DNA of 32,222 bases from Myxococcales bacterium (GTDB lineage: Bacteria > Myxococcota_A > Polyangia > Polyangiales > Polyangiaceae), in NCBI GenBank assembly GCA_009692485.1, contig SHZB01000018.1, forward strand, positions 1 to 32,222, in the 5' to 3' direction. How positions within the stretch are numbered: the stretch's first letter is position 1; every line of letters starts with the position of its first letter. The notes beneath the pieces were generated by a model. That model was given only the letters and a program-made list of their open reading frames with translations, was not told the DNA's origin and ran no database searches. Of this stretch, positions 1,570 to 27,673 are shown piece after piece. The translations under genes and the position numbers were made by a program.

Positions 1570-1570
1570 T

Positions 1571-1642
1571 CTGTGACCTCTGTGACCTCTGTGACCTCTG
1601 TGACCTCTGTGACCTCTGTGACCTCTGTGACCTCTGTGACCT
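1571..1642 (+). repeat. 9-bp tandem repeat, eight perfect units, in a 5' leader
   Basis: Eight perfect head-to-tail copies of CTGTGACCT fill most of the gap between the HEAT-protein stop (1674) and the lipoprotein start (1569). On the minus strand, the transcribed sense for both genes, the unit is AGGTCACAG and each junction creates AGAGG, a Shine-Dalgarno-like sequence. The copy nearest the start is 7 bases from ATG 1569. The array therefore forms a repeated ribosome-binding-site leader. Slippage in copy number is likely for such a repeat. Confidence 0.95.
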
Positions 1643-1673
1643 CTCTGTGGCACGGCGCGTACCGAGGACGGGC

Positions 1674-2612
1674 TCAGTGTCGGTGAAGCGGGCTCTTCTG
1701 AAACCGCAGCGCGAGTGCATCGAGCAACAAGGCGAGGGGCGGAGCTGCGCTGCTGCGTGCCTCGGCGATGAGAGCCGGTGTCGACGGGTCATCGACCACG
1801 AGGACAGCCTCGGTGATGGCGGCCCTGCTCACGGCGTCGTTGTGTTGGCGGAAGGCTTGGATGAGCGCATCAGCAGCCGTAGCTCGAACCGCGCTCTCGT
1901 CGCCGTTTGCGGCAATGATCGGCGTTTGCCATGCCCAGGCGTTGCCGACGTCGCCGAGCGAGCGCGCGAGGACCTCAACCTCCGCCGAGCGTGCCGTGCT
2001 CGTGATGAGAGTGGCCAAGCGTTCCGCGACGAGCTGTCGGCGGCAGTGCCCCATCCCCGCGAGGACTCCGAGCCGCTTCTTGTCGGCGATATCGCTCAAG
2101 GCCACGAGCATCTTCGCGGCTCGCTGTGTGCCGAGCTTGCCGAGCGCTTGTGCGGCAGCGACGGTGACCTCATGCTCGTCAATGGCGGAGGCCATGACGG
2201 CCTCGAGCACGGTGGTCGATCGCGCGTCACGCAATGCGCCGACGGCCTCGAGCAAATTCACGCGCCACGCGAGCCACGCTGTCCTACTCAAATCGCCGCG
2301 GCCGGGCGATGCCACAGCGAGCTCTTGAAGCATGGGCATGAGCGCGCGCGTGCCCAAACCGCGTAATTGCGGTGTCACGCTGGCGAGCCGACCGCGCTTG
2401 TTCGCGTCGAGCGCCGGAAGCTCCGCGCGTAGGCGTCCGAGCTCGGTGAACGCGCCAACATCCGAAGCCTTTGCCGTGGCGATCGACCGCTCGAGCAGGA
2501 CGAGGTCCGCGCGCGGAATGCTCGAAGTGCGGACGAGCGCGCCGTCGCCGAAGGCCGAGCCCGAGATGAGCGCCGTCGTGCTGAGAACGAAAATTAGAAT
2601 GCCGATTCTCAT
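1674..2612 (-). CDS. Exported HEAT-repeat protein
   Basis: This 312-residue protein starts at ATG 2612 with a signal peptide (MRIGILIFVLSTTALISGSA, cleavage expected near residue 22). The start overlaps the stop of the PAD gene as ATGA, so translation is probably coupled; GGGAGAG lies just upstream. The mature part is almost entirely alpha-helical with repeating pairs such as LLEAVGALRDARSTTVLEAV, VTVAAAQALGKLGTQRAAKM and AVRATAADALIQAFRQH. This is the spacing and Ala/Leu pattern of HEAT or PBS-lyase-type scaffold repeats. Such proteins bind other proteins and are seldom enzymes. Because it is coupled to a secreted arginine deiminase, it may be a periplasmic partner or scaffold for that enzyme; this is inference. 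Its stop is about 30 bp before the 9-bp repeat array. Confidence 0.85.
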   Translation of the reverse strand: MRIGILIFVLSTTALISGSAFGDGALVRTSSIPRADLVLLERSIATAKASDVGAFTELGRLRAELPALDANKRGRLASVTPQLRGLGTRALMPMLQELAVASPGRGDLSRTAWLAWRVNLLEAVGALRDARSTTVLEAVMASAIDEHEVTVAAAQALGKLGTQRAAKMLVALSDIADKKRLGVLAGMGHCRRQLVAERLATLITSTARSAEVEVLARSLGDVGNAWAWQTPIIAANGDESAVRATAADALIQAFRQHNDAVSRAAITEAVLVVDDPSTPALIAEARSSAAPPLALLLDALALRFQKSPLHRH

Positions 2613-4954
2613 TTGCCACTCTCCCACCAATGGACGGTCTTGGGCACGGCGCGGGTCGCGTTGGTGCCGCAGTGCACCTCACCGAGGAGGCGATGGTAAA
2701 GGTCCCAATTCTCAACCCAGTAGACCGTGACGCCGTAGGGCGAGAGCGCCTGGGTGAGCTGCGACTTGAAGATGTCGACGTTGTTGATGAGCGGCCCGTG
2801 CGGCTCTGGCGTCGCGAACACCGAGTCGCTCATGTAGATGCCGTTTACCGTGCCTGGATTGAACGCAACCGAGTAGCCGGACTGCGCCCAGTGCAGATAC
2901 GGGACATCGACGATTTCAGCGTCGGTGAGCCCGGTCTCGGCCTTGAGCGCAGCCACCTGTTCGCCGACCTTCACCGCAGCCCATGCGCTCTCGTTCATGA
3001 TGTCCGGATCGGCGAGGACCTTTGAGATCGTGATCGCGGCGGACACGTTGGTGCTCCAGAACTTGCCGACGAACATCTGTTTTTGGCCGTTGCCGTCCTT
3101 CTGCTGCTGCTCGAGGAGCTGCTTGGCGAGCGCGGCGTCGTTCGCGAGCATGACCCAACCGCGCGGCGAGTTCGCCTTCACGAAAGAGACCGTCTCGTCC
3201 ACGTGTCCGACGAGCAGCCACGAGGTGTCGATCGTGACGAGGCCCTGTACGGAGTTCGACGTGATGAGTTTGTCGAAGGCCTTGTCCGGGTAGAAGCTCG
3301 CGTGGCTTCCGCGCAACACTCGCCCGAGCGGCCATGCCTTTCCGTTGTGCGTATACGGCGGGATCGTCTCGGTGTTGCCGAACGAGTTCAGCGTGTCCAT
3401 CGAGTCCGAGTGATTCGGGTCGTAGACGACGGCGCCGGCGATGTCCTTGCCTTGGAAATCCGTGAACACGACGCGGCCCGCCGTGCGGAGCTTGCCGGAG
3501 GCGTAGTTCGCCGAGCGAAAATTGACGTGCAGCGCTTGTTTTCCGAGGACCGACGGCATGGCCATGTACGCCGTCTCGAAGAAATCCTGCGTCCACTGGT
3601 CCGCCTCGAACACCTCGTGAACGCCGACTTTTGCCGCACCCGCTGCATCCGCGAGGTCGTCGCGAAACAGCGTGCTCGCCGTGGAGTTGAAGCTCGTCAC
3701 GTAATAAGTGGTCAATGGGTCGAGGTGGTGGCGAAACACGACGGGTGCCACGCGCATCCGCACGGTGTCGGTGCCGCCCATGACGTCGCCGCCGTTCACC
3801 GTGAGCGTGACGTCGACGAAGCCGTTCCAGCTCGCGCTGTCGCGCACGAAGTCTTTGCCCTCGATCGCGAGCTCGACGCCGCTCTTGAGTTCACTTGCGC
3901 TCAACGACGCGCCGGGCACGTACTCGGACCACGCGCCGCCGGCCTTCTTGAAGAGTCGGACGAATTTGCTGCCTGGGCTCGCGACGCTCACAGAGCCGCT
4001 GGCGCCGGCATTTGCGCTTGGCCAGGGAGCGATCTGCAGGCGCGCGAGATCGAGCAAATCGTCGGTGCCGTTGATGACGTTGTCCGCGGCATCGTTGCAG
4101 GCGGCGAGCGCGGCATCGGTGCCGGTGGACGGGCACACGCTCGCGTCGTCGTCGATGTTGGCGAGGAAGATGGCGCCGTGGGTCGCATCCCATGTGCTCT
4201 CGGCGTTGTCTTCGCTCGGCTCGGCGAGATCGATCTTGCCGTTGCGGTTGTTGTCGGCGCGAAGATCGACGATGGCGGCAGGGCACGCGGGGGTTTGCCC
4301 GTCACAGTCCTCATCCGCGGCGGTGGCGCAGCTCTCCTCGGCGGGAAGAAGTTCGCCCTTGCAGGCACCGTAGCCGGAGCCATCCGGGAGGCATGTTTGG
4401 GCGCCCGCCTTGCAATTGCCGACGTTCTTCGTCGCTGCGGGCCCGGAGTAACACTCGGCGTTCGTGCCGGGAGCGCACGCGCAGTCGACACCGTCCTCGT
4501 TGACGGCGCCGTCGCAGTCGTCGTCGCCGGGTGTGACGCAGAGTTCTTCGGACGGGACGATCTGTCCAAGGCAGGGACCCCAAGTTCCGTCGCTCGAGCA
4601 GCTCTCGACGCCCGCGCTGCACGAGCCGATGCCTTGCGTGTCCGCAGGGCCGTCGTAGCAATTGCGTTCGTTGCCGGGGACGCAGCCCGAGGCGCCACTG
4701 CCGCCCGTGCCGTCATTGCCTCCGACGCCGACCTCGACGCTCGCGCCTCCGACGCCAGCGAAAGAGCTGTCGACACTCTCGTTGTTGTTCTTGTCGGTGC
4801 CATCGCCGAATAGAACGTCGTCCGCTGTACAGCTCACGAGTCCGGGGGCGAGCGCGAGGGCGAGTGCGAGGGGCAACGCCGCCGTGTCGAGCGGCGACGG
4901 GCGTGCGATGGGAAGCGACTCGGGTGCTCGACTTGGGCGTAGCTTGAGAGGCAT
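2609..4954 (-). CDS. Lipoprotein protein-arginine deiminase (PADI type) with MopE-like modules
   Basis: The predicted reaction is Ca-dependent conversion of peptidyl-arginine to citrulline plus ammonia, outside the cytoplasm. The 781-residue protein starts at ATG 4954, giving a signal peptide and lipobox LVSC (Cys42). A Gly-rich linker follows to about residue 90. Two Cys-rich modules (about 91-158 and 160-224) each end in DDDCDG or DEDCDG, as in MopE-like metal-binding motifs. From residue 228, ADNNRNGKIDL and later GAIFLANIDDD match the Ca-binding middle domain of animal PADs. The catalytic domain (about 440-781) has WTQD (Asp457), GHVDE (His584, Asp586) and GEVHCGTN (Cys762), equivalent to Asp350, His471, Asp473 and Cys645 of human PAD4. 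Spacing is close to PAD4 (127 and 176 residues here, 121 and 172 there). It is the first gene of a minus-strand operon and is coupled to the HEAT gene. An upstream extension to 5182 is open but lacks a signal peptide. Confidence 0.9.
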   Translation of the reverse strand: MPLKLRPSRAPESLPIARPSPLDTAALPLALALALAPGLVSCTADDVLFGDGTDKNNNESVDSSFAGVGGASVEVGVGGNDGTGGSGASGCVPGNERNCYDGPADTQGIGSCSAGVESCSSDGTWGPCLGQIVPSEELCVTPGDDDCDGAVNEDGVDCACAPGTNAECYSGPAATKNVGNCKAGAQTCLPDGSGYGACKGELLPAEESCATAADEDCDGQTPACPAAIVDLRADNNRNGKIDLAEPSEDNAESTWDATHGAIFLANIDDDASVCPSTGTDAALAACNDAADNVINGTDDLLDLARLQIAPWPSANAGASGSVSVASPGSKFVRLFKKAGGAWSEYVPGASLSASELKSGVELAIEGKDFVRDSASWNGFVDVTLTVNGGDVMGGTDTVRMRVAPVVFRHHLDPLTTYYVTSFNSTASTLFRDDLADAAGAAKVGVHEVFEADQWTQDFFETAYMAMPSVLGKQALHVNFRSANYASGKLRTAGRVVFTDFQGKDIAGAVVYDPNHSDSMDTLNSFGNTETIPPYTHNGKAWPLGRVLRGSHASFYPDKAFDKLITSNSVQGLVTIDTSWLLVGHVDETVSFVKANSPRGWVMLANDAALAKQLLEQQQKDGNGQKQMFVGKFWSTNVSAAITISKVLADPDIMNESAWAAVKVGEQVAALKAETGLTDAEIVDVPYLHWAQSGYSVAFNPGTVNGIYMSDSVFATPEPHGPLINNVDIFKSQLTQALSPYGVTVYWVENWDLYHRLLGEVHCGTNATRAVPKTVHWWESGK

Positions 4955-5606: not shown

Positions 5607-5660
5607 CGCCACCGATGCGCCGCGTGATGGCAAGTCCATCGCGGCCCTGGGCCTAGGCAT

Positions 5661-5758
5661 CCGCGGCCATGGATCGGCGGCCATGGATCGGCGGCCATGC
5701 ATCGGCGGCCATGCATCGGCGGCCATGCATCGGCGGCCATGCATCGGCGGCAATGTGA
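5661..5758 (+). repeat. 14-bp tandem repeat array upstream of tssC
   Basis: Six near-perfect units of CGGCGGCCATGCAT (the first two end in GGAT, and the first begins CC) plus a degenerate seventh unit run from 5661 to 5758. They lie in the 246-bp gap between the PilZ stop and the tssC start. The unit holds the palindromes GGCC and ATGCAT. Derived fragments (GCCGGCCCTGG, GGCGGCCCTGG) continue to about 5790. The array sits where the tssC promoter or leader would be. Confidence 0.93.
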
Positions 5759-5852
5759 TTGCCGGCCCTGGGGATTGGCGGCCCTGGTGTTTGGCGGCCG
5801 TGGTGTCCGTCTTACGCGAAAGCGAGTAACGTCGCGCTCGTTCGAAGGCGTC

Positions 5853-7547
5853 ATGTCGAGCGACTCGCAGCAGCCGATCCCACCGATCCCGGTCCCCGCT
5901 CCATCGGCGGCGCCGTCCCTCGCGCCGATTCGCAGCGCGTCGCCGGCGCCGGAACGTTCGGCATCCGCTGCGCCTTCACCGGCACCCATCGCTTCGGCAT
6001 CCGCTGCGCCTTCACCGGCACCCATCGCTTCGGCGTCCTCGGCGCCCGTCATGGTCAACGCCAGCGTGAGCTCGGACCGCATCGATCTCGCTGCCATCGC
6101 CGCGCGCGGGACGAGCCGCACGATCTTGGACGAGATCATGGCCACATGCACCGTTCTATCCGGAACGCCGGAGCGGGAGCAAGTCACGGCGGGGCTGCGT
6201 GAGCTGCTCCGTTTTGCAGTGTCGTCGGGCCAGTCCGGCGCGCATGCCGACATCGCCCTCGTGGACTTGGTCATCGTCGCGGTGACCGAGCGGCTGTCGC
6301 GGCAGATCGACGCCGTCCTTCATCACCCTGCGTTTCAGGCGCTCGAGGCGGCGTGGCGTGGCCTTCGCTTCGTCATCGACCGCGTCGACTTCAGCGAGAA
6401 CATCTCGGTCGAGCTGCTCAATCTCCGAAAGGCGGACCTGATCGAAGATTTTCAGGACGCGCCCGAGCTGGTTAAGTGCGGCTTGTACCGCCTCGTCTAC
6501 TCGAACGAGTTTGGCGTGTTCGGCGGCAGGCCCTACGGCTTGCTCGTAGCGAATTATGAATTTTCGCCCACGCCGCAGGACATGTTTCTTCTCGATCAAT
6601 GCGCCGCGGTCGCCACGATGTCCCACGCGCCCTTCATCGCCGCTGCTGCGCCGCCGTTCTTCGGCATGAAGGACTACGCGAGCCTTCCTCAGCTGAATGA
6701 TCTTCACAGCTTGTTCGAAGGGCCGCAGTACGTGAAGTGGCGGGCGTTTCGTGACTCGGATGACTCACGCAGCGTCGGGCTCACGTTGCCACGGTTCTTG
6801 TTGCGGCTGCCCTACGGCGCCGAGTCGATGCGGGTGAAGGCCTTCGATTACGAAGAAGACGTGCTCGGCGAGCATGAACACTTCTTATGGGGCAATGCGG
6901 CCTTCGCGTTCGCGACGCGTATCGCCAACAGCTTTGCCCATTACCGCTGGTGCTTGAACATCGTCGGACCAGAGACAGGCGGTACCGTCGAGGACCTTCC
7001 GCTGCACCGGTACCGCGCGATGGGGCAGCTTCAGACCAAGATCCCGACCGAGATCATCGTCACCGAGCGGCGCGAGGCCGAACTCGCCGACCTCGGATTC
7101 ATCGCCTTCGCGTTTCGACGCGAGACGGAGAACGCGTGTTTTTTTAGCGCGAGCTCGACCCAGAAGCCCAAGTACTTTGGCATCGGCGCCGACGCGCAGA
7201 AGGCTGCGCTCAATCACCGGCTCGGTACGCAGTTGCCTTACCTGTTCATCACCTGCCGGCTCGCGCACTACATCAAGGTGCTTCAACGCGAGAACATCGG
7301 AAGCTGGAAAGAGCGCGACGATTTGCAGACCGGACTGCAGACGTGGATCAACCAATACGTCGCCGCGATGACCGTGGTGAGCGCGGCTGTGCGTGCGCGC
7401 CGTCCGCTCAAGAGTGCCAGTGTCATCGTCGCCGCCGTGGCAGGAAGCGCGGGCTGGTACAAAGTCGATCTGCAAGTGCAGCCGCACTTTCACTATATGG
7501 GCGCCGAGTTTCAGATCGGCCTCGTCGGCCGGCTCGATCAGGAGTGA
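5853..7547 (+). CDS. tssC: Contractile sheath large subunit, TssC/VipB family
   Basis: This 564-residue protein matches the type VI secretion sheath large subunit along its length after a low-complexity N-terminus. Recognisable blocks are FQALEAAWRGLRF, SVELLNLRKADLIEDFQDAP, GLYRLVYSNEFG, FGGRPYGLLVANYEF, APFIAAAAPPFF, FEGPQYVKWRAFRDSDDSR, LPRFLLRLPYG, HFLWGNAAFAFATR, KIPTEIIVTERRE, LPYLFITCRLAHYIKVLQRE and the C-terminal HFHYMGAEFQIGLVGRLDQE. In known systems TssC pairs with TssB to build the contractile tube. No tssB, tube (hcp), baseplate or ClpV gene is present in this window. The first roughly 70 residues are Ala/Pro/Ser-rich and include a 36-bp duplication. ATG 5853 is the first start giving a sensible protein; an upstream in-frame extension would be translated repeat. 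The PLD-like gene follows after 2 bp. Confidence 0.93.
   Translation: MSSDSQQPIPPIPVPAPSAAPSLAPIRSASPAPERSASAAPSPAPIASASAAPSPAPIASASSAPVMVNASVSSDRIDLAAIAARGTSRTILDEIMATCTVLSGTPEREQVTAGLRELLRFAVSSGQSGAHADIALVDLVIVAVTERLSRQIDAVLHHPAFQALEAAWRGLRFVIDRVDFSENISVELLNLRKADLIEDFQDAPELVKCGLYRLVYSNEFGVFGGRPYGLLVANYEFSPTPQDMFLLDQCAAVATMSHAPFIAAAAPPFFGMKDYASLPQLNDLHSLFEGPQYVKWRAFRDSDDSRSVGLTLPRFLLRLPYGAESMRVKAFDYEEDVLGEHEHFLWGNAAFAFATRIANSFAHYRWCLNIVGPETGGTVEDLPLHRYRAMGQLQTKIPTEIIVTERREAELADLGFIAFAFRRETENACFFSASSTQKPKYFGIGADAQKAALNHRLGTQLPYLFITCRLAHYIKVLQRENIGSWKERDDLQTGLQTWINQYVAAMTVVSAAVRARRPLKSASVIVAAVAGSAGWYKVDLQVQPHFHYMGAEFQIGLVGRLDQE
5961..6032 (+). repeat. 36-bp in-frame tandem duplication in tssC
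   Basis: Two identical 36-bp units (5961-5996, 5997-6032) encode two copies of ASAAPSPAPIAS in the N-terminal extension of TssC. The length is a multiple of three, so the frame is kept. It lies outside the conserved sheath fold. Confidence 0.93.
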
Positions 7548-16298: not shown

Positions 16299-19200
16299 CT
16301 ATTGCTTCGCACGGGCGGCTTCGGATTGGAGGAGGCCGGTCGCGGTGTCGATGAATTGGGCAATCGCCTGATTGGCAGTTACGCGCTGGTCTGTATTGCC
16401 ATTACGGAGGAGATTGCCATTCCGGAGGAGGGTCGTCGCCGCGCAGATCGGTTCGCGCTCTTTCGAGGGAAAGGCGAGGCATAAAAGGCGGTAGGAGCCG
16501 AGCGTTTTTTGGGTATCGATGGGCTCGGCGGCGAGCACGGCGGCGGCGTGGTGTAACAGCAATACGAGCGCGCCGAGGTCGGGGGAGAGCTTGCGCCAGG
16601 TGTCGATGAAGTGGTCAGTCTTGGTGAGGGCGAGGAGCGGCGCGGGGTGACCGTCTTTGGCGATGCGAGCGGCGAATTGGAGCAGCTCGAAGCGGCGAAC
16701 GGGAGATGAGAGAGAGCTCGTGAGCGCGTCCATGAGCGGGATGTCGTCGTCGTGAGTGTGGGGCAGGGCGCACAGGAGGGCCACGCTCAAGGCATCGGCT
16801 TGCAGGGCGGCGCCGAGCTCGGACTTGCGACCGAGCGTGCGCGCAAGGACGATGAGCTCTTCGCTGCAGTGCTGTGGGTGCCGCTGGTTGGCGAGCAGGG
16901 TCGCGGCGTCGGCGAAGCGCTGGTGAGTTTTGAGCTCTGTGACGGCGTCGGAGAAGAGGGCGGGCTCGTAGCGACGCTCGGAGGCGGCGGCGAGGAAGGC
17001 GTCGAGCGAACGCAAGGCCGCGCACTCGGGCGGGTCTTGCGGGGAAGCCGCGGCGAGGCGTGGCAGGTGGGGCAGGCCGTCGGCGATGCGGAGGCCGAGC
17101 GCGAGCGAATAGTTGCCGCACGCGGGACGGCGGAATCGATCGGGATCGCCCAGTTTTTCCGTGCAATTCAGCGGCGCGAAGAGTGTCGCGAGCGAGTCGG
17201 AGGCGCGCGCGGCGACCGGCTCGAGGCCACCGACATCCGCGAGCCAAGTGGGCAAGGGCGTGAGGGCGGATGCGACGGCGGCGTCGTCGGCGCGATCTCC
17301 CAAGGCGCGGCGCTCGAGCGCGAAGAGCGCACCGGCGAGGAAGGGCTCGCCCGCTTCGGCGCTCTGTTGCGCGGCGAGCGCGATGGTGGCGGTGGCGTCG
17401 CGGAGCCAGCTGCCGTCCGGCTCGGGGCTGACGGCTGCGTCACCGAGGCGCGAGACTCCGGTCCACGCGCCCATGGCCGCGCGCGCGTGACGGCCAGCGC
17501 GCACGCCGTCGCCCGTGAGCCGGTAGAGCACGCTGGTGAGGAGGGCTGCGTGTGCGAAGAAGCGGGCGCCGTCTGCGCGTGCGCTGGAGGAGTTGCGCGG
17601 TTCGAAGGAGACGTCGAGCGAGCTCGAGCTCTTGGCGCCAAGCTCCACGACGCCGAGGCCGACGTTGAAGGTGCTGGCGTTGGTGAGCAAGGGGCTCCCG
17701 AGCGAGATGCTCTCGTCGGCGCTGAAGATCCAGTTGCCCCGTTGCTCGCGGAAGCGAAAGTGCTGACGCGGCACGGCGAGGCCGTCCTTCTCGGCGCGCG
17801 CGAGGACCGTCTCGAGGAGCGCGAGCGCATCTGTGCGTTGGCCGGCGCGAAATTGTTCGAGGGCACGGCGCACGGTGAAGATCGGGGTCGCGTCGGGGGG
17901 CACGCACACGCCCTCGGTCGCGAACGCGAGCGCGGCTCGGAGCGCAGCTTCGTCACGACCGCGCATGGCCTGTTCGGTGCGGAGCGTGAGCGGCACAAGG
18001 ATGGGGCGCCGGCGCGAGCGCGCGACCTCGAGGGTGGTGAGGGGAGGCTCCTTGTCCGTCGCGATGAGGACGGCGTGCGACATCAATAAGAGGACGTCGC
18101 CGGCGATGGTGGCGTCGCGCTCGAAGGCTTGTGCGGCGAGCGCGGTGAGGGCCTCGGCCGGGGAGCTCGCGGCGAGCAGAGTGCCGACCGCGCTCGGTTC
18201 GTCGAGCCACGCGAAAGCGGAGAAAGCGGAGGAGGCATGGGGCGTTTCGAAGACTGCGCGGAGGGCCGAGAAGAGCCGAAGACCGTGCGAGCGCAGCTGG
18301 GCGGTGTCGGGTGCGTCCCCGGGCGCGAGCAGGCGCAGGAGCAGGTAGCTCTCGGCGATGGCCGTCGCGATGTCGGAGTCGAGCGGGCCCCCGAGGGCGG
18401 CGGCGACGATCGTGCGCGCCTCGTCGTGAGCGATGGCGAGCTTGAGTTTTTGCGTGCCGCGGGACGCGAAATCGAGGGCGTCGCTGACGACGAGCGCGAG
18501 CAGCATCACGCGCGGCGACACGGGCCGATCGCTTGGGCGTGCGCGGGCGAGCCCGAGGAGGCGGCGCTGTTTTTTTCGCAGCCGCTCGAAGGCGTCACGG
18601 AGCGGGTCGGTCGGGATGCGCGGCGCCGACTCGCATGAACCGGATGGCGTCGGAGTGCGCACGAGGGTGGCCACGGCGGTGATGGTGCCGTCGGTGAAAT
18701 CGACCAGCTCGTTACGAAAGTCGATGTCGCTCGGGGTCGGGGCGGCTCCATCGTCGAGGCCGGAAATTGCGGCAACTAGGGCCACGCGGGCAGTTGTTCG
18801 CGAGTTCGTGAACAAGCGCGGGTTCGCGACGGCGGCGTCGAGCGAGCCATCGAAAACGAGCGGGAGATAGCGAACGATCGCTGCGGAGAGCGCGGCGAGC
18901 GTGGGCTGCGGCAGTGGTCCGCCGAGCGCGTCGGCGATGTGCGGCGCTCCGGTGGCGAGCGCGTCGGTGTGTCCGAGGGTGAGGCCGAGCACGGCGTGTG
19001 CGGCGTGAAGGCCCGCGAGCCCCCAGCTATGGCCGGCGCCGACGGGGCCGCGGAGCTTTTCACCGAGCGCGTCGAAGAGCTTGGCGAGCTGTGGGCCCTG
19101 GCCGAAACCCGGCTCAGACATCGCGAGCGCCACGGCCAGGAGCCCCGCGTCGTAGAGCTCGGACACGCTCGCGGCGGCGCGGACTTTAGCGGCCTCCGCG

Positions 19201-20663
19201 TTCGCCAGCGCCTTCGCCAGCGCGTCACGAAGCGCGGGCGATTCGGCGACGCCCGGGAGGTAACTGAGCTGCGCGAGCGTGACGATCCGCATGCGGCCGG
19301 GCGCGCTGTCGGCGAGTTTTTCGAGCGCCGCGAGGTGGGCCGCGGCGAGCTCTTCGACGTGGCGGTGGGTGGCGCCGCCGTCGAGCCCGACCATCGCTCC
19401 GGTGCCACGCTGAACGAGCAGGCCATCGAGGAAGAGCCACGCGGTCTTCGTCGCGGCGACGAGCTCGACGGCGCGCTGGTAGCGCACGCTCCAAGGCTCG
19501 ATGCCGAGGCGCTCGGCGGATTCGCTTGCGGGCGGGGCTGCGACATCGAGGGAATACGCGAGCGCGTGGACGAACTCGAGATCGGCCGCGGACGTGATCG
19601 ACGGAGCCAAGGGGAGGGAGCAACGCGCGGGCGTGCTGAGTCGCCGATCGAGCTGAGCCATCCGCGAGGGATCGAGCTCGGCCGCGATGCGTGGTCGGCG
19701 CCGCGCAAACTCAGCTTCGGTCCCGCTCGCGGCGGCGCGAACGAACAACACATCGGCATACGCGCTCGAGCCAGCGGGCAGGGCGAGCGCGAGGGGGTCG
19801 GGTGTCGTCAGCGGCGGTGGCGGTGTCGTTGGCGATATCGGCGGTGTTGTCGGCGGTGTCGTCGTCGGCGGTGTCGTCGTCGGCGGTGTCGTCGTCGGCA
19901 CGGGAGCTTCCGCGAGCGCGAGGCCGCTCTTCGTGAAGAGCGCGAGCGCGTGGCGTAGGCGCGCACCCGGCTCCGTGTCGGGGCCGAAGCGGAGGGCGTG
20001 GCGTTCTAGTTCGTCGATCTCGCGCGCGGCGGCGACATAGTCGAAGCGGCCGGCGAACATGACGGCGCGATCGAGCGTTCGAGCGACCCGCGCTGCCTCC
20101 GCGATGCGCGCCTCAGGAACTCGAATGGTGGCAGTGAGGCCGAAGGTCATCGGTGCGAGCGCGTCGTCGGGAAAGAGCTGCACGGCACTCTTCGTGTCCG
20201 TCGAGCCCGTCGCGAAGAGCTGCGCTACTCCGGCGGCGCGGCCGATCGCCATCAGCGTCGCCCCGGTCGAGACGTGGAGCGGGCGCGAGCGTTCGGGCAC
20301 GGCGATGGCGAAGATCCCGTCTTGGCATGCGGCGGCCGTCGTCTGCGCGAGCGCCGGCTCGAAGCTCACGACCGCGACGCAGTCGGTGCGCGCGGCCAGC
20401 TCGCGGTAGAGAAGGACGAGGCCGGGCGTGCCGGTCTTGCGTGCGAGCGCGGCGAGCCGAATGGGGACATCGACCGAGGACGCGGCGAGCACCGCTGCCT
20501 CGCACGCGGCGACCGTGACGCAGGCCTTGTCCGACGACGGCGGCGCGGGCACGGCGGGTGGAGTGCAACCGAGCGTCGCGAGCGTGAGGCTCAGCGAGAG
20601 GCAAAGCGCGAGGCCCACCGCGCGGCGCACCGAGAGGCTCACCCAGAGGCCAACCGATGCCAT
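16299..20663 (-). CDS. Very large lipoprotein of unknown function
   Basis: This 1454-residue protein starts at ATG 20663, which places a signal peptide (LALCLSLSLTLATLGC, lipidated Cys33) at the N-terminus. A start 66 bp upstream (ATG 20729) is in frame but would run through the 40-bp palindromic element. A Thr/Pro linker (PTTTPPTTTPP and similar) lies near residues 256-290. The rest is almost wholly Ala/Leu-rich helix with many Arg/Glu pairs, for example RYEPALFSDAVTELKTHQRF and ALFALERRALGDRADDAAVA. This is the look of tandem TPR- or alpha-solenoid-type repeats, though no TPR consensus was clear. No enzyme motif was found. It is a single gene on the minus strand, convergent with the SUMF1-like gene and divergent from the toxin-antitoxin pair. 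Confidence 0.82.
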   Translation of the reverse strand: MASVGLWVSLSVRRAVGLALCLSLSLTLATLGCTPPAVPAPPSSDKACVTVAACEAAVLAASSVDVPIRLAALARKTGTPGLVLLYRELAARTDCVAVVSFEPALAQTTAAACQDGIFAIAVPERSRPLHVSTGATLMAIGRAAGVAQLFATGSTDTKSAVQLFPDDALAPMTFGLTATIRVPEARIAEAARVARTLDRAVMFAGRFDYVAAAREIDELERHALRFGPDTEPGARLRHALALFTKSGLALAEAPVPTTTPPTTTPPTTTPPTTPPISPTTPPPPLTTPDPLALALPAGSSAYADVLFVRAAASGTEAEFARRRPRIAAELDPSRMAQLDRRLSTPARCSLPLAPSITSAADLEFVHALAYSLDVAAPPASESAERLGIEPWSVRYQRAVELVAATKTAWLFLDGLLVQRGTGAMVGLDGGATHRHVEELAAAHLAALEKLADSAPGRMRIVTLAQLSYLPGVAESPALRDALAKALANAEAAKVRAAASVSELYDAGLLAVALAMSEPGFGQGPQLAKLFDALGEKLRGPVGAGHSWGLAGLHAAHAVLGLTLGHTDALATGAPHIADALGGPLPQPTLAALSAAIVRYLPLVFDGSLDAAVANPRLFTNSRTTARVALVAAISGLDDGAAPTPSDIDFRNELVDFTDGTITAVATLVRTPTPSGSCESAPRIPTDPLRDAFERLRKKQRRLLGLARARPSDRPVSPRVMLLALVVSDALDFASRGTQKLKLAIAHDEARTIVAAALGGPLDSDIATAIAESYLLLRLLAPGDAPDTAQLRSHGLRLFSALRAVFETPHASSAFSAFAWLDEPSAVGTLLAASSPAEALTALAAQAFERDATIAGDVLLLMSHAVLIATDKEPPLTTLEVARSRRRPILVPLTLRTEQAMRGRDEAALRAALAFATEGVCVPPDATPIFTVRRALEQFRAGQRTDALALLETVLARAEKDGLAVPRQHFRFREQRGNWIFSADESISLGSPLLTNASTFNVGLGVVELGAKSSSSLDVSFEPRNSSSARADGARFFAHAALLTSVLYRLTGDGVRAGRHARAAMGAWTGVSRLGDAAVSPEPDGSWLRDATATIALAAQQSAEAGEPFLAGALFALERRALGDRADDAAVASALTPLPTWLADVGGLEPVAARASDSLATLFAPLNCTEKLGDPDRFRRPACGNYSLALGLRIADGLPHLPRLAAASPQDPPECAALRSLDAFLAAASERRYEPALFSDAVTELKTHQRFADAATLLANQRHPQHCSEELIVLARTLGRKSELGAALQADALSVALLCALPHTHDDDIPLMDALTSSLSSPVRRFELLQFAARIAKDGHPAPLLALTKTDHFIDTWRKLSPDLGALVLLLHHAAAVLAAEPIDTQKTLGSYRLLCLAFPSKEREPICAATTLLRNGNLLRNGNTDQRVTANQAIAQFIDTATGLLQSEAARAKQ
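19852..19896 (+). repeat. 15-bp tandem repeat encoding a Thr/Pro linker
   Basis: GGCGGTGTCGTCGTC is repeated three times (19852-19866, 19867-19881, 19882-19896), with degenerate relatives back to about 19813. On the minus strand it encodes the TTTPP repeats of the large lipoprotein. The unit is a multiple of three. Confidence 0.88.
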
Positions 20664-20690
20664 GCGCGATGCACACGCCGAGGCGATGTT

Positions 20691-20730
20691 CGAGACAGTG
20701 GCGCTCGCGAGCGGCGTCAGGGCTTCCATA
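20691..20730 (+). repeat. 40-bp palindrome-centred element, copy 1
   Basis: This element matches 21588-21627 at 36 of 40 bases in the same orientation. Its core is the perfect 12-bp palindrome CGCTCGCGAGCG (20702-20713). Both palindrome differences between the copies are compensatory. The core is about 45 bp upstream of the large lipoprotein start at 20663. The two copies are 897 bp apart and bracket the toxin-antitoxin pair. Confidence 0.88.
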
Positions 20731-23800: not shown

Positions 23801-24723
23801 GTCGTTTCATCGTGCGGCGCATCCTCGCGCTCGTGCCGACCTTGTGGCTCACCGTCACGCTGGTGTTTTTTTTCGTGCGGCTCGCGCCCGGCGGACCCTT
23901 CGACGGGGAGCGCGCCGTCCCGCGTGAGGTGCTCCTTGCGCTCGAGGCGAAGTACCACCTCGGCGATCCGCTCTATCGCCAGTACCTGGATTTCCTCGCA
24001 GATCTGGTGCTGCGCGGCGATCTCGGGCCGTGCTTCAAGTACCCCGGGCGCACCGTGAACGAGCTCTTGCGGGTGAGTCTGCCGGTGTCGCTCCAGCTCG
24101 GCGTCATGGCCATGACCTTCGCGCTCGCCGTCGGCGTTCCGCTCGGGGTCATCGGCGCGCTACGCCAAAATACCTGGGCCGACACCCTCGCGACCAGCGT
24201 CGCCATGATCGGTGTCAGCGTGCCGCGTTTCGTGCTCGCGCCGCTCCTCGTGATGGTGTTCGGGCTCCAGCTCTATTGGCTGCCGGTCGCGCGCTGGGAG
24301 TCGTGGCGTCACGCGATCTTGCCGGTCATCTGCGCGGGCCTGCCTACGGCCGCGTACATCGCGCGGCTCACGCGCGGCGGCATGCTCGAGCTGGTGCGGG
24401 CGGACTTCGTGCGGACGGCTCGCGCCAAGGGACTCGGTGAGGGCGCGATCGTCGTGCGCCACCTCTTGCGCGGCGGGCTGTTGCCGGTGGTGAGCTACCT
24501 CGGACCGGGCTTCTCGGGGCTCTTGGTGGGCTCGCTCGTGGTCGAGACGATCTTCAACATCCCGGGCATGGGGCGCTACTTCGTCGAGGCCGCGACGAAC
24601 CGCGACTACAACATCGTGATGGGCGTAACGATCGTCTACGGCACCTTGCTGATGACGCTCAACGCCCTCGTCGACATCGCCTACGCGTGGCTCGATCCGC
24701 GGGTCAGCCTCGAGGAGCTGTGA
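23797..24723 (+). CDS. oppB: Oligopeptide ABC transporter permease, OppB type
   Basis: This 308-residue inner-membrane protein has about six transmembrane segments. The first is ILALVPTLWLTVTLVFFFV. The family motif PGGPFDGERAVP follows, then a permease core with LQLGVMAMTFALAVGVPLGV. The EAA-type loop that docks the ATPase is seen in ELVRADFVRTARAKGLGEGA. The end, FNIPGMGRYFVEAATNRDYN, is diagnostic for the DppB/OppB family. GTG 23797 is preceded by AGGAG nine bases upstream, and it overlaps the mini-ORF stop. The stop overlaps the oppC start as GTGA. Confidence 0.95.
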   Translation: MSRFIVRRILALVPTLWLTVTLVFFFVRLAPGGPFDGERAVPREVLLALEAKYHLGDPLYRQYLDFLADLVLRGDLGPCFKYPGRTVNELLRVSLPVSLQLGVMAMTFALAVGVPLGVIGALRQNTWADTLATSVAMIGVSVPRFVLAPLLVMVFGLQLYWLPVARWESWRHAILPVICAGLPTAAYIARLTRGGMLELVRADFVRTARAKGLGEGAIVVRHLLRGGLLPVVSYLGPGFSGLLVGSLVVETIFNIPGMGRYFVEAATNRDYNIVMGVTIVYGTLLMTLNALVDIAYAWLDPRVSLEEL

Positions 24724-25700
24724 GCGCCGCGACGAGCGGCGAGAGCGAGCCTATCGAGGACGCGGGCGGCTCCACCTTCGCGGCCGATGCTTGGCGACGC
24801 TTGCGAAAAAACCGCGCCGCGGTCGCCTCGCTCGCCGTCTTGGGAGCGCTGCTCCTCGGCTGCATTCTCGTGCCGGCGCTCGGGAGCTACGGCTACGCCG
24901 ACACCGACCTCGCGCTCGGACCGACCCCGCCGTCGTGGGCGCACTGGATGGGCACCGATTTGTTTGGTCGCGATCTCATGGTGCGGGTCTTCTTCGGCGG
25001 GCGCGTGTCGTTCGCGGTCGGCGTCGTGTCGACCGCGGTGAGCTTCGTCATCGGCGTGACTTGGGGGTCGGTGGCGGGCTTCTTCGGCCGCCGCATCGAC
25101 GCGGTCATGATGCGGATCGTCGACGCGCTCTACACGTTTCCGTTTCTCATCTTCGTCATCTTGCTGTCGGTGTTCTTCGCCAATCAAGGCGGCCTCTTGC
25201 ACCGCGCGTTCGTTCGCGTGCTCGGGCTCTTCACCGCGCGCGCTCACGATCCCTCGTATTTCCCGGTCTTTCAGATCGTGTTCGTGTTCGCGGCGCTCGG
25301 CGCGGCGTCGTGGCTGACGATGGCGCGCATCGTACGCGGGCAGGTGATCGCCCTGCGCGCGCAGCCCTTCGTCGAGGCGGCGCGGTCCATCGGCGCCACC
25401 GAAGCGAGCATCCTCGTTCGACACGTCCTGCCGAACGCGCTCGGGCCCATCATAGTGTACGCGACCCTCACCGTGCCGGAGGTGATGTTGACCGAGGCGT
25501 TCCTCAGCTTCCTTGGGCTCGGCACCCAAGAGCCGCTGGCGAGCTGGGGACTGCTCGCGGCGAGCGGCGCGGAGACGATGGATGTCTACCCGTGGGTGCT
25601 CGTCTTTCCGGCGTTGATGCTCGCCGTCACGCTGTTCTGTTTCAACCACCTCGGCGACGGTCTGCGCGACGCGCTCGATCCGCGGATCCGCAAAGATTAG
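24720..25700 (+). CDS. oppC: Oligopeptide ABC transporter permease, OppC type
   Basis: This 326-residue inner-membrane protein starts at GTG 24720, overlapping the oppB stop as GTGA. The N-terminal OppC-type region has RRLRKNRAAVASLAVLGALL, followed by the typical HWMGTDLFGRDLMVRVFFGG. Several membrane segments and the ATPase-docking loop FVEAARSIGATEASILVRHV follow, then LPNALGPIIVYATLTVPEVM and EAFLSFLGLG. The C-terminus, NHLGDGLRDALDPR, is a near-perfect family match. It forms the channel with OppB. Confidence 0.95.
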   Translation: MSAATSGESEPIEDAGGSTFAADAWRRLRKNRAAVASLAVLGALLLGCILVPALGSYGYADTDLALGPTPPSWAHWMGTDLFGRDLMVRVFFGGRVSFAVGVVSTAVSFVIGVTWGSVAGFFGRRIDAVMMRIVDALYTFPFLIFVILLSVFFANQGGLLHRAFVRVLGLFTARAHDPSYFPVFQIVFVFAALGAASWLTMARIVRGQVIALRAQPFVEAARSIGATEASILVRHVLPNALGPIIVYATLTVPEVMLTEAFLSFLGLGTQEPLASWGLLAASGAETMDVYPWVLVFPALMLAVTLFCFNHLGDGLRDALDPRIRKD

Positions 25701-25721
25701 GCTCGCGAGCCGCACGCCATC

Positions 25722-27673
<1,952 letters not shown>

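What the first reader, a model, noticed from the sequence alone, without database searches (positions are those of the whole stretch)
2609..4954. Human-type (PADI) arginine deiminase as a bacterial lipoprotein with MopE-like modules
Seen: the catalytic equivalents of human PAD4 Asp350, His471, Asp473 and Cys645 are Asp457, His584, Asp586 and Cys762, with similar spacing. The Ca-binding middle domain is also recognisable (ADNNRNGKIDL, GAIFLANIDDD). Known: the Porphyromonas enzyme is an unrelated fold branch, and PADI-type enzymes are reported mostly in animals and cyanobacteria. Inference: a surface-anchored enzyme that citrullinates foreign or own proteins, plausibly in predation. Adding two DDDCDG metal-binding modules and a lipobox to PADI domains is an unusual architecture.
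Basis: partly seen in the sequence, partly recalled or inferred. Interest (0 to 1): 0.78.

Follow-up and report, generated by a model that had tools for sequence, protein, structure and literature searches.

The report
Secreted arginine deiminase with conserved partner
The gene encodes a lipid-anchored relative of the human enzymes that turn protein arginine into citrulline, and in these soil bacteria such enzymes are almost always made together with a second, previously unlabelled secreted protein that probably binds and controls them.

Summary
Window 2609-4954 (minus strand) encodes a 781-aa lipoprotein with a protein-arginine deiminase (PAD) domain (PF03068, E 1.9e-86). The catalytic residues are D457, H584, D586 and C762 exactly as read, and the AlphaFold model matches human PAD4 (Z 43.8, rmsd 2.0 Å over 507 residues).

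The enzyme is not 'human-type': it falls in the other PAD clade, with actinobacterial PADs, and has lost calcium site 2 (E351→F458, D369→R480). PADs are common here (72 of 284 Myxococcota genomes). The Cys-rich DDDCDG modules are exchangeable spacers. Predation is untested.

A secreted HEAT-repeat protein (1674-2612, minus strand) starts inside the PAD stop codon (ATGA). Its homologue lies next to PAD in nearly every locus: 45 sampled genomes have it and all carry PAD; none of 212 PAD-less genomes has it. PADs of the human-side clade in the same phylum have their own downstream HEAT protein. One arginine in a rigid loop is near-invariant in the partners. I propose a two-component, cell-envelope citrullination system in which the partner docks on and controls or aims the PAD.

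The parts
2609..4954 (-). PAD lipoprotein gene, 781 aa
   Evidence: PF03068 1.9e-86; PDB profile match E ~1e-99; AF2 model vs PAD4 Z 43.8
4829..4954 (-). Signal peptide with lipobox LVSC (lipid Cys C42)
   Evidence: sequence; lipobox-like motif scored in 91 of 104 related proteins, most of the rest truncated or visibly carrying one
4490..4684 (-). Cys-rich DDDCDG module 1
   Evidence: own-module profile 100 bits; PF11617 below cut-off
4280..4477 (-). Cys-rich DEDCDG module 2
   Evidence: own-module profile 106 bits
4229..4255 (-). EF-hand-like calcium loop DNNRNGKID (residues 234-242), PAD2 Ca6-like
   Evidence: alignments A1/A3
4049..4159 (-). Calcium site 3/4/5 region: N266, D268, D270, D288, D299, D302 (PAD4 N153, D155, D157, D165, D176, D179)
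   Evidence: N153/D155/D157/D165/D179 equivalents in 104/104, D176 in 103/104
2618..3772 (-). PAD catalytic domain: W454, D457, R490, H584, D586, C762
1674..2612 (-). Partner gene: secreted HEAT-repeat protein, 312 aa, ATG overlaps PAD stop (ATGA at 2609-2612)
   Evidence: AF2 pLDDT 94.4; Pfam HEAT_2 only sub-threshold
2370..2399 (-). Partner loop with near-invariant Arg: KRGRLASVTP (residues 72-81), R73
   Evidence: R73 in 95% of 90 partners, loop 71-79 in the model, an Arg at the aligned place in 14/14 group-II partners

Best explanation
The window holds a two-gene operon for a cell-envelope citrullination system. Gene 1 makes an active, calcium-dependent protein-arginine deiminase that is exported, lipidated at C42 and held away from the membrane by a flexible linker plus two disulfide-rich modules. 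Gene 2, translated by stop-start coupling from the same mRNA, makes a secreted HEAT-repeat solenoid that binds the PAD outside the cytoplasm and controls or aims it; the near-invariant arginine in its N-terminal loop is the best candidate for the contact with the arginine-binding active site (pseudosubstrate or docking). Shown by computation: PAD identity, intact catalytic site, which calcium sites are kept, lipobox, coupling, near-obligate association, partner fold. Inferred: activity, extracytoplasmic location, physical binding, the role of R73, and the biological target.
For: PAD: Pfam, PDB profile, model match to substrate- and inhibitor-bound PAD4, catalytic residues invariant. Precedent for activity in bacteria: a Streptomyces PAD deiminates citrulassin lasso peptides (PMC9266682, PMC12971885). 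Partner: next to PAD in nearly all group-I loci, mostly with a -4 nt overlap; in 284 genomes 45 with partner, all PAD+, 0 of 212 PAD- genomes, Fisher p 9e-34, strong hits all adjacent except one on a broken contig. Group-II PADs have a downstream secreted HEAT protein too: 13 sampled active loci by profile and a further one (L145) by eye. The two PAD-like genes with damaged catalytic residues (L032 C645S, L153) lack it. PAD and partner distances correlate, r 0.77 against at most 0.17 in shuffles. Partner model is a confident HEAT solenoid resembling alphaRep binders; R73 95%, aligned Arg 14/14 in group II.
Against: No complex could be modelled and no interaction tested. A near-invariant arginine can be structural. 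Actinobacterial PADs on the same side of the tree, and single loci L076 and L135, lack the partner, so it is not needed for catalysis as such. Correlated distances and co-occurrence are expected for any operon inherited as a unit. Ca2 loss could mean weak or altered activity.
Confidence: 0.6

Rival explanations
1. The partner is a dedicated periplasmic chaperone (steric foldase) for the PAD, comparable to the lipase foldase Lif that is encoded just downstream of its lipase, and leaves after folding or export.
For: Downstream, translationally coupled, exported, helical, absent beside the Gram-positive (Streptomyces) PADs that have no periplasm.
Against: Partners evolve faster than PADs (mean identity 36% against 49%) yet keep a specific Arg loop; HEAT solenoids are not the Lif fold (own knowledge).
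Confidence: 0.25
2. The partner is an immunity protein that keeps the PAD off the producer's own envelope proteins, the PAD being an offensive (predatory or antagonistic) enzyme.
For: Gene order and coupling fit effector-immunity pairs; the phylum has many predators; the partner is with active PADs and missing with the damaged ones L032 and L153.
Against: The partner is conserved across the phylum rather than strain-specific; PAD is a lipoprotein, not an injected effector; no toxicity known for PADs; the T6SS gene is beside it only in this genus.
Confidence: 0.2
3. The partner is the physiological substrate: PAD citrullinates its loop arginine to switch partner function.
For: The Arg loop is among the most conserved features and often reads KRGR; human PADs are known to favour RG-type sites (own knowledge).
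Against: The Gly is not kept in all partners; a 1:1 secreted enzyme-substrate operon would be unusual.
Confidence: 0.1
4. One reading: a human-type PAD with metal-binding modules used in predation.
For: PAD domain and modules are real.
Against: Tree and Ca2 residues put it away from human PADs; modules are replaceable spacers; no predation evidence.
Confidence: 0.1

Closest known systems
Animal PADI1-4 (PF03068 + PF08527 + PAD_N)
   Same: Middle and catalytic domain fold, catalytic D/H/D/C, calcium sites 1, 3 and the Asp of site 4 (model vs PAD4 Z 43.8)
   Different: No PAD_N, Ca site 2 lost, secreted lipoprotein, coupled HEAT partner, opposite side of the tree
Actinobacterial PADs (a Streptomyces PAD modifies citrulassin lasso peptides)
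   Same: Same side of the tree, 31-34% identity, loss of Ca2, His-containing linker in some
   Different: No HEAT partner found next to them; no lipobox in two of the three. Whether the citrulassin enzyme itself is in this clade was not tested
Group-II Myxococcota PADs (this work, e.g. L152, L146)
   Same: Lipoprotein PAD with a downstream secreted HEAT protein
   Different: Keep Ca2 ligands E351 and mostly D369 as in human PADs; lack the EF-hand-like loop and Cys modules
Porphyromonas PPAD / agmatine-deiminase type
   Same: Converts peptidyl arginine to citrulline, secreted
   Different: Phyletically distinct family (PMC8826395); not PF03068 (own knowledge)
Lipase-Lif foldase pairs
   Same: Exported enzyme with a coupled, helical partner just downstream (own knowledge)
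   Different: No sequence or fold relation tested or known

Membership tests
PADI family (PF03068) | Significant PAD catalytic domain | tested here: met
   1.9e-86, 291 bits, cut-off 25
PADI family (PF03068) | Catalytic Asp/His/Asp/Cys | tested here: met
   D457, H584, D586, C762
PADI family (PF03068) | PAD_M middle domain | tested here: met
   Pfam sub-threshold, but profile and model align it to PAD4
PADI family (PF03068) | Citrulline-forming activity, Ca dependence | not testable with these tools
   needs an assay
Animal/cyanobacterial (human-type) PADI clade | PAD_N domain | tested here: not met
   No Pfam hit; residues 43-225 are linker and Cys-rich modules, low confidence in the model
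Animal/cyanobacterial (human-type) PADI clade | Ca site 2 ligands (PAD4 E351, D369) | tested here: not met
   F458 and R480
Animal/cyanobacterial (human-type) PADI clade | Calcium-switch Asp (PADI2 D389 / PAD4 D388) | tested here: met
   D504; Asp in 89 of 104 relatives
Animal/cyanobacterial (human-type) PADI clade | Tree position with human PADs | tested here: not met
   Human PAD4 lies on the other side of a 100/99 branch; no cyanobacterial sequences were available
Fungal/actinobacterial/proteobacterial PADI type | Triple-His linker between middle and catalytic domain | tested here: inconclusive
   Window has RHHL, two of three His
MopE metal-binding repeats (PF11617) | Score above curated cut-off | tested here: not met
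   13.7 bits, cut-off 27
HEAT repeat proteins (partner) | Pfam HEAT_2 above cut-off | tested here: not met
   19.1 bits, cut-off 27.7
HEAT repeat proteins (partner) | Helical-pair solenoid fold | tested here: met
   pLDDT 94.4; best matches alphaRep/HEAT designs, Z 15.8, rmsd 5.0 over 213 residues

The most novel reading that the evidence does not exclude
Myxococcota PADs work as near-obligate two-protein machines: a co-secreted HEAT solenoid inserts a near-invariant arginine loop into the PAD active site as a natural protein regulator, an arrangement shared by the human-side and the actinobacterial-side PAD clades of the phylum and, as far as I could find, not described for any PAD.
Probability: 0.25. 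Interest if true: 0.85.

Novelty: new variant of a known kind. Interest (0 to 1): 0.66.

Why it matters
Human PADs are drug targets and how they are restrained is a live question; I know of no dedicated protein partner encoded with a PAD. A near-obligate partner found with two deep PAD clades gives a direct, testable system. It also shows that PADs are common in a whole bacterial phylum, in two divergent forms, one with human-like calcium site 2, which bears on where animal PADs came from.

Tried and rejected
1) A conserved wider neighbourhood: none beyond the partner; a T6SS sheath gene (VipB) lies near PAD only in the window and one congener. 2) The first neighbour clustering timed out and was repeated on non-overlapping ORFs. 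I first took the negative-distance cluster for shadow ORFs of PAD; inspection showed a real downstream gene (the 19-member opposite-strand cluster is its shadow). 3) MopE membership of the modules: below cut-off. 4) Loss of the calcium switch as a marker of the window's clade, as published for fungi and actinobacteria: not met, D504 is kept. 5) Cyanobacterial and fungal PADs could not be obtained, so the tree has human, three actinobacterial and Myxococcota sequences only. The first tree joined human PAD4 with the long branch L055; more group-II sequences broke up that long branch. In the larger alignment Ca2 column 369 of group II was misplaced; pairwise alignment corrected it. 6) No paper in the open library on Myxococcota PADs or a PAD-HEAT pair was found; subscription papers are not covered.

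Full report
Observation. The interval 2609-4954 read on the minus strand is one open frame of 781 codons. Pfam's PAD model matches residues 395-778 at 1.9e-86. The Pfam middle-domain model is below its cut-off, but a profile of 18 relatives aligns both domains to human PAD4 at E ~1e-99. An AlphaFold model built from 47 sequences is confident from about residue 226 onward and superposes on human PAD4 with Z 43.8, rmsd 2.0 Å over 507 residues, ligand-bound entries ranking first. Three of the catalytic residues are invariant in 104 relatives and the Cys is kept in 103.

Calcium sites. Ligand roles are taken from published PAD4/PAD2 structures (own knowledge) and mapped by alignment. Site 3 (N266, D268, D270, D288, D299, D302), site 1 (Q456, E460, E529) and the Asp of site 4 (D504) are kept; an EF-hand-like loop (D234, N236, N238, D242) matches PAD2 site 6. 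Site 2 is lost: E351 is F458 and D369 is R480, in this protein and nearly all its clade. So calcium dependence is likely but regulated differently from human PADs (inference).

Anchor and spacer. A signal peptide ends in LVSC, lipid Cys C42. A lipobox-like motif is scored in 91 of 104 relatives, and most others visibly carry one or are cut by contig ends. Between anchor and enzyme lies a spacer of 9 to about 290 residues: GGxGG linkers, TD repeats, two DDDCDG-type modules (window, L011, L013, L020, L035, L070), one such module plus a GA-rich linker (L131), or somatomedin-B domains (L009, L040 by Pfam; L039, L042 by eye). The window's modules recur in other open frames of the same genome (C95, C153, C123, C14). 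They look like exchangeable extracellular spacers, not a special PAD feature.

Distribution and clade. PAD occurs in 72 of 284 sampled Myxococcota genomes, and 465 stretches encoding relatives exist in the GTDB collection, the best 80 nearly all Myxococcota. The nearest relative is an 81%-identical protein in a congeneric MAG (L061/L011). The own genome has a second, divergent PAD (G000:C59, L026). A tree with human PAD4 and three actinobacterial PADs splits PADs into two sides with 100/99 support: window clade + second-copy clades + actinobacteria (group I), against human PAD4 + a second Myxococcota clade (group II). Group II keeps E351 in all active members and D369 in most. The window PAD is therefore not the human-type one in its phylum. 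No cyanobacterial or fungal sequences were available, so this does not test the published transfer scenario (PMC8826395).

The partner. Directly downstream, 1674-2612 minus strand, an ATG overlaps the PAD stop (ATGA). It encodes a 312-aa protein with an N-terminal signal-like segment and no curated family match (HEAT_2 at 19.1 bits, cut-off 27.7). Homologues lie on the same strand immediately next to PAD in 124 of the loci held (some are duplicates of one place), most often with the same -4 nt overlap; a few further places have it just upstream. In the 284-genome sample the strong partner hits fall in 45 genomes, all PAD-bearing, and in none of 212 PAD-less ones (p 9e-34); all lie beside a PAD except one at a contig break. 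The 27 PAD genomes without it carry group-II PADs in the cases examined (apart from the damaged gene L153); there another secreted HEAT protein sits at the same place, found by profile in 13 loci and by eye in one more (L145). Exceptions without any partner are L076, L135, the actinobacterial loci, and the two PAD-like genes with damaged catalytic residues (L032, L153).

Partner structure and conservation. The model is an all-helical solenoid, pLDDT 94.4, closest to HEAT/alphaRep binders. R73 is conserved in 95% of 90 partners; R191, R192, W226 and R243 are also highly conserved. R73 lies in an extended, confidently modelled loop (71-79) before the main repeats. In the joint alignment group-II partners have an arginine near the corresponding place in 14 of 14. 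Distances of PAD and partner correlate (r 0.77), as expected for a unit inherited together.

Mechanism. Best reading: a lipid-anchored, calcium-using PAD acting outside the cytoplasm with a bound HEAT protein that controls or aims it; the arginine loop is the likely contact. Steps shown: gene content, fold, active site, coupling, association. Steps inferred: activity, location, binding, role of the loop, target. An actinobacterial PAD is known to act on lasso peptides, so PAD activity in bacteria has precedent, but that enzyme's place in this clade was not tested. Rivals: chaperone, immunity protein, dedicated substrate.

Verdict. Observation confirmed; interpretation partly supported; the real novelty is the near-obligate partner and the two PAD clades of the phylum.

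Noticed in passing
G000:C59:1947-4171 (L026): Second PAD-partner operon in the same genome, from a divergent group-I clade (E351 to Y, D369 to P, Q349 to E).
   Followed up: partly
L141-L152, L154, L055: Group-II Myxococcota PADs keep the human-like Ca2 ligands and group on the human side of the tree; relevant to the origin of animal PADs.
   Followed up: partly
L009, L039, L040, L042: Somatomedin-B domains, usually known from animals, N-terminal to PAD in Polyangiaceae lipoproteins.
   Followed up: partly
L032 (same genus) and L153: PAD-like proteins with damaged catalytic residues (C645S in L032) and no HEAT partner: possible pseudoenzymes.
   Followed up: partly
window 5697-7547 (+): T6SS sheath (VipB) homologue with a ~190-residue N-terminal extension without Pfam match, divergently oriented to the PAD operon; also near PAD in congener L028/L063.
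   Followed up: partly
window 1570-1644 and 5657-5767: Tandem repeats flank the operon: 9-bp TCTGTGACC x8.3 just downstream and a 14-bp array upstream.
   Followed up: no
window 16302-20729 (-) and 24684-27488 (-): Large open frames (1476 and 935 aa) without any Pfam match.
   Followed up: no
L125, record titled Comamonas sp. KCTC 72670: PAD-partner pair nested among Myxococcus/Pyxidicoccus sequences; the record's organism name is probably wrong.
   Followed up: no
L148 (G138:C110): Two PAD genes in tandem followed by one HEAT partner.
   Followed up: no
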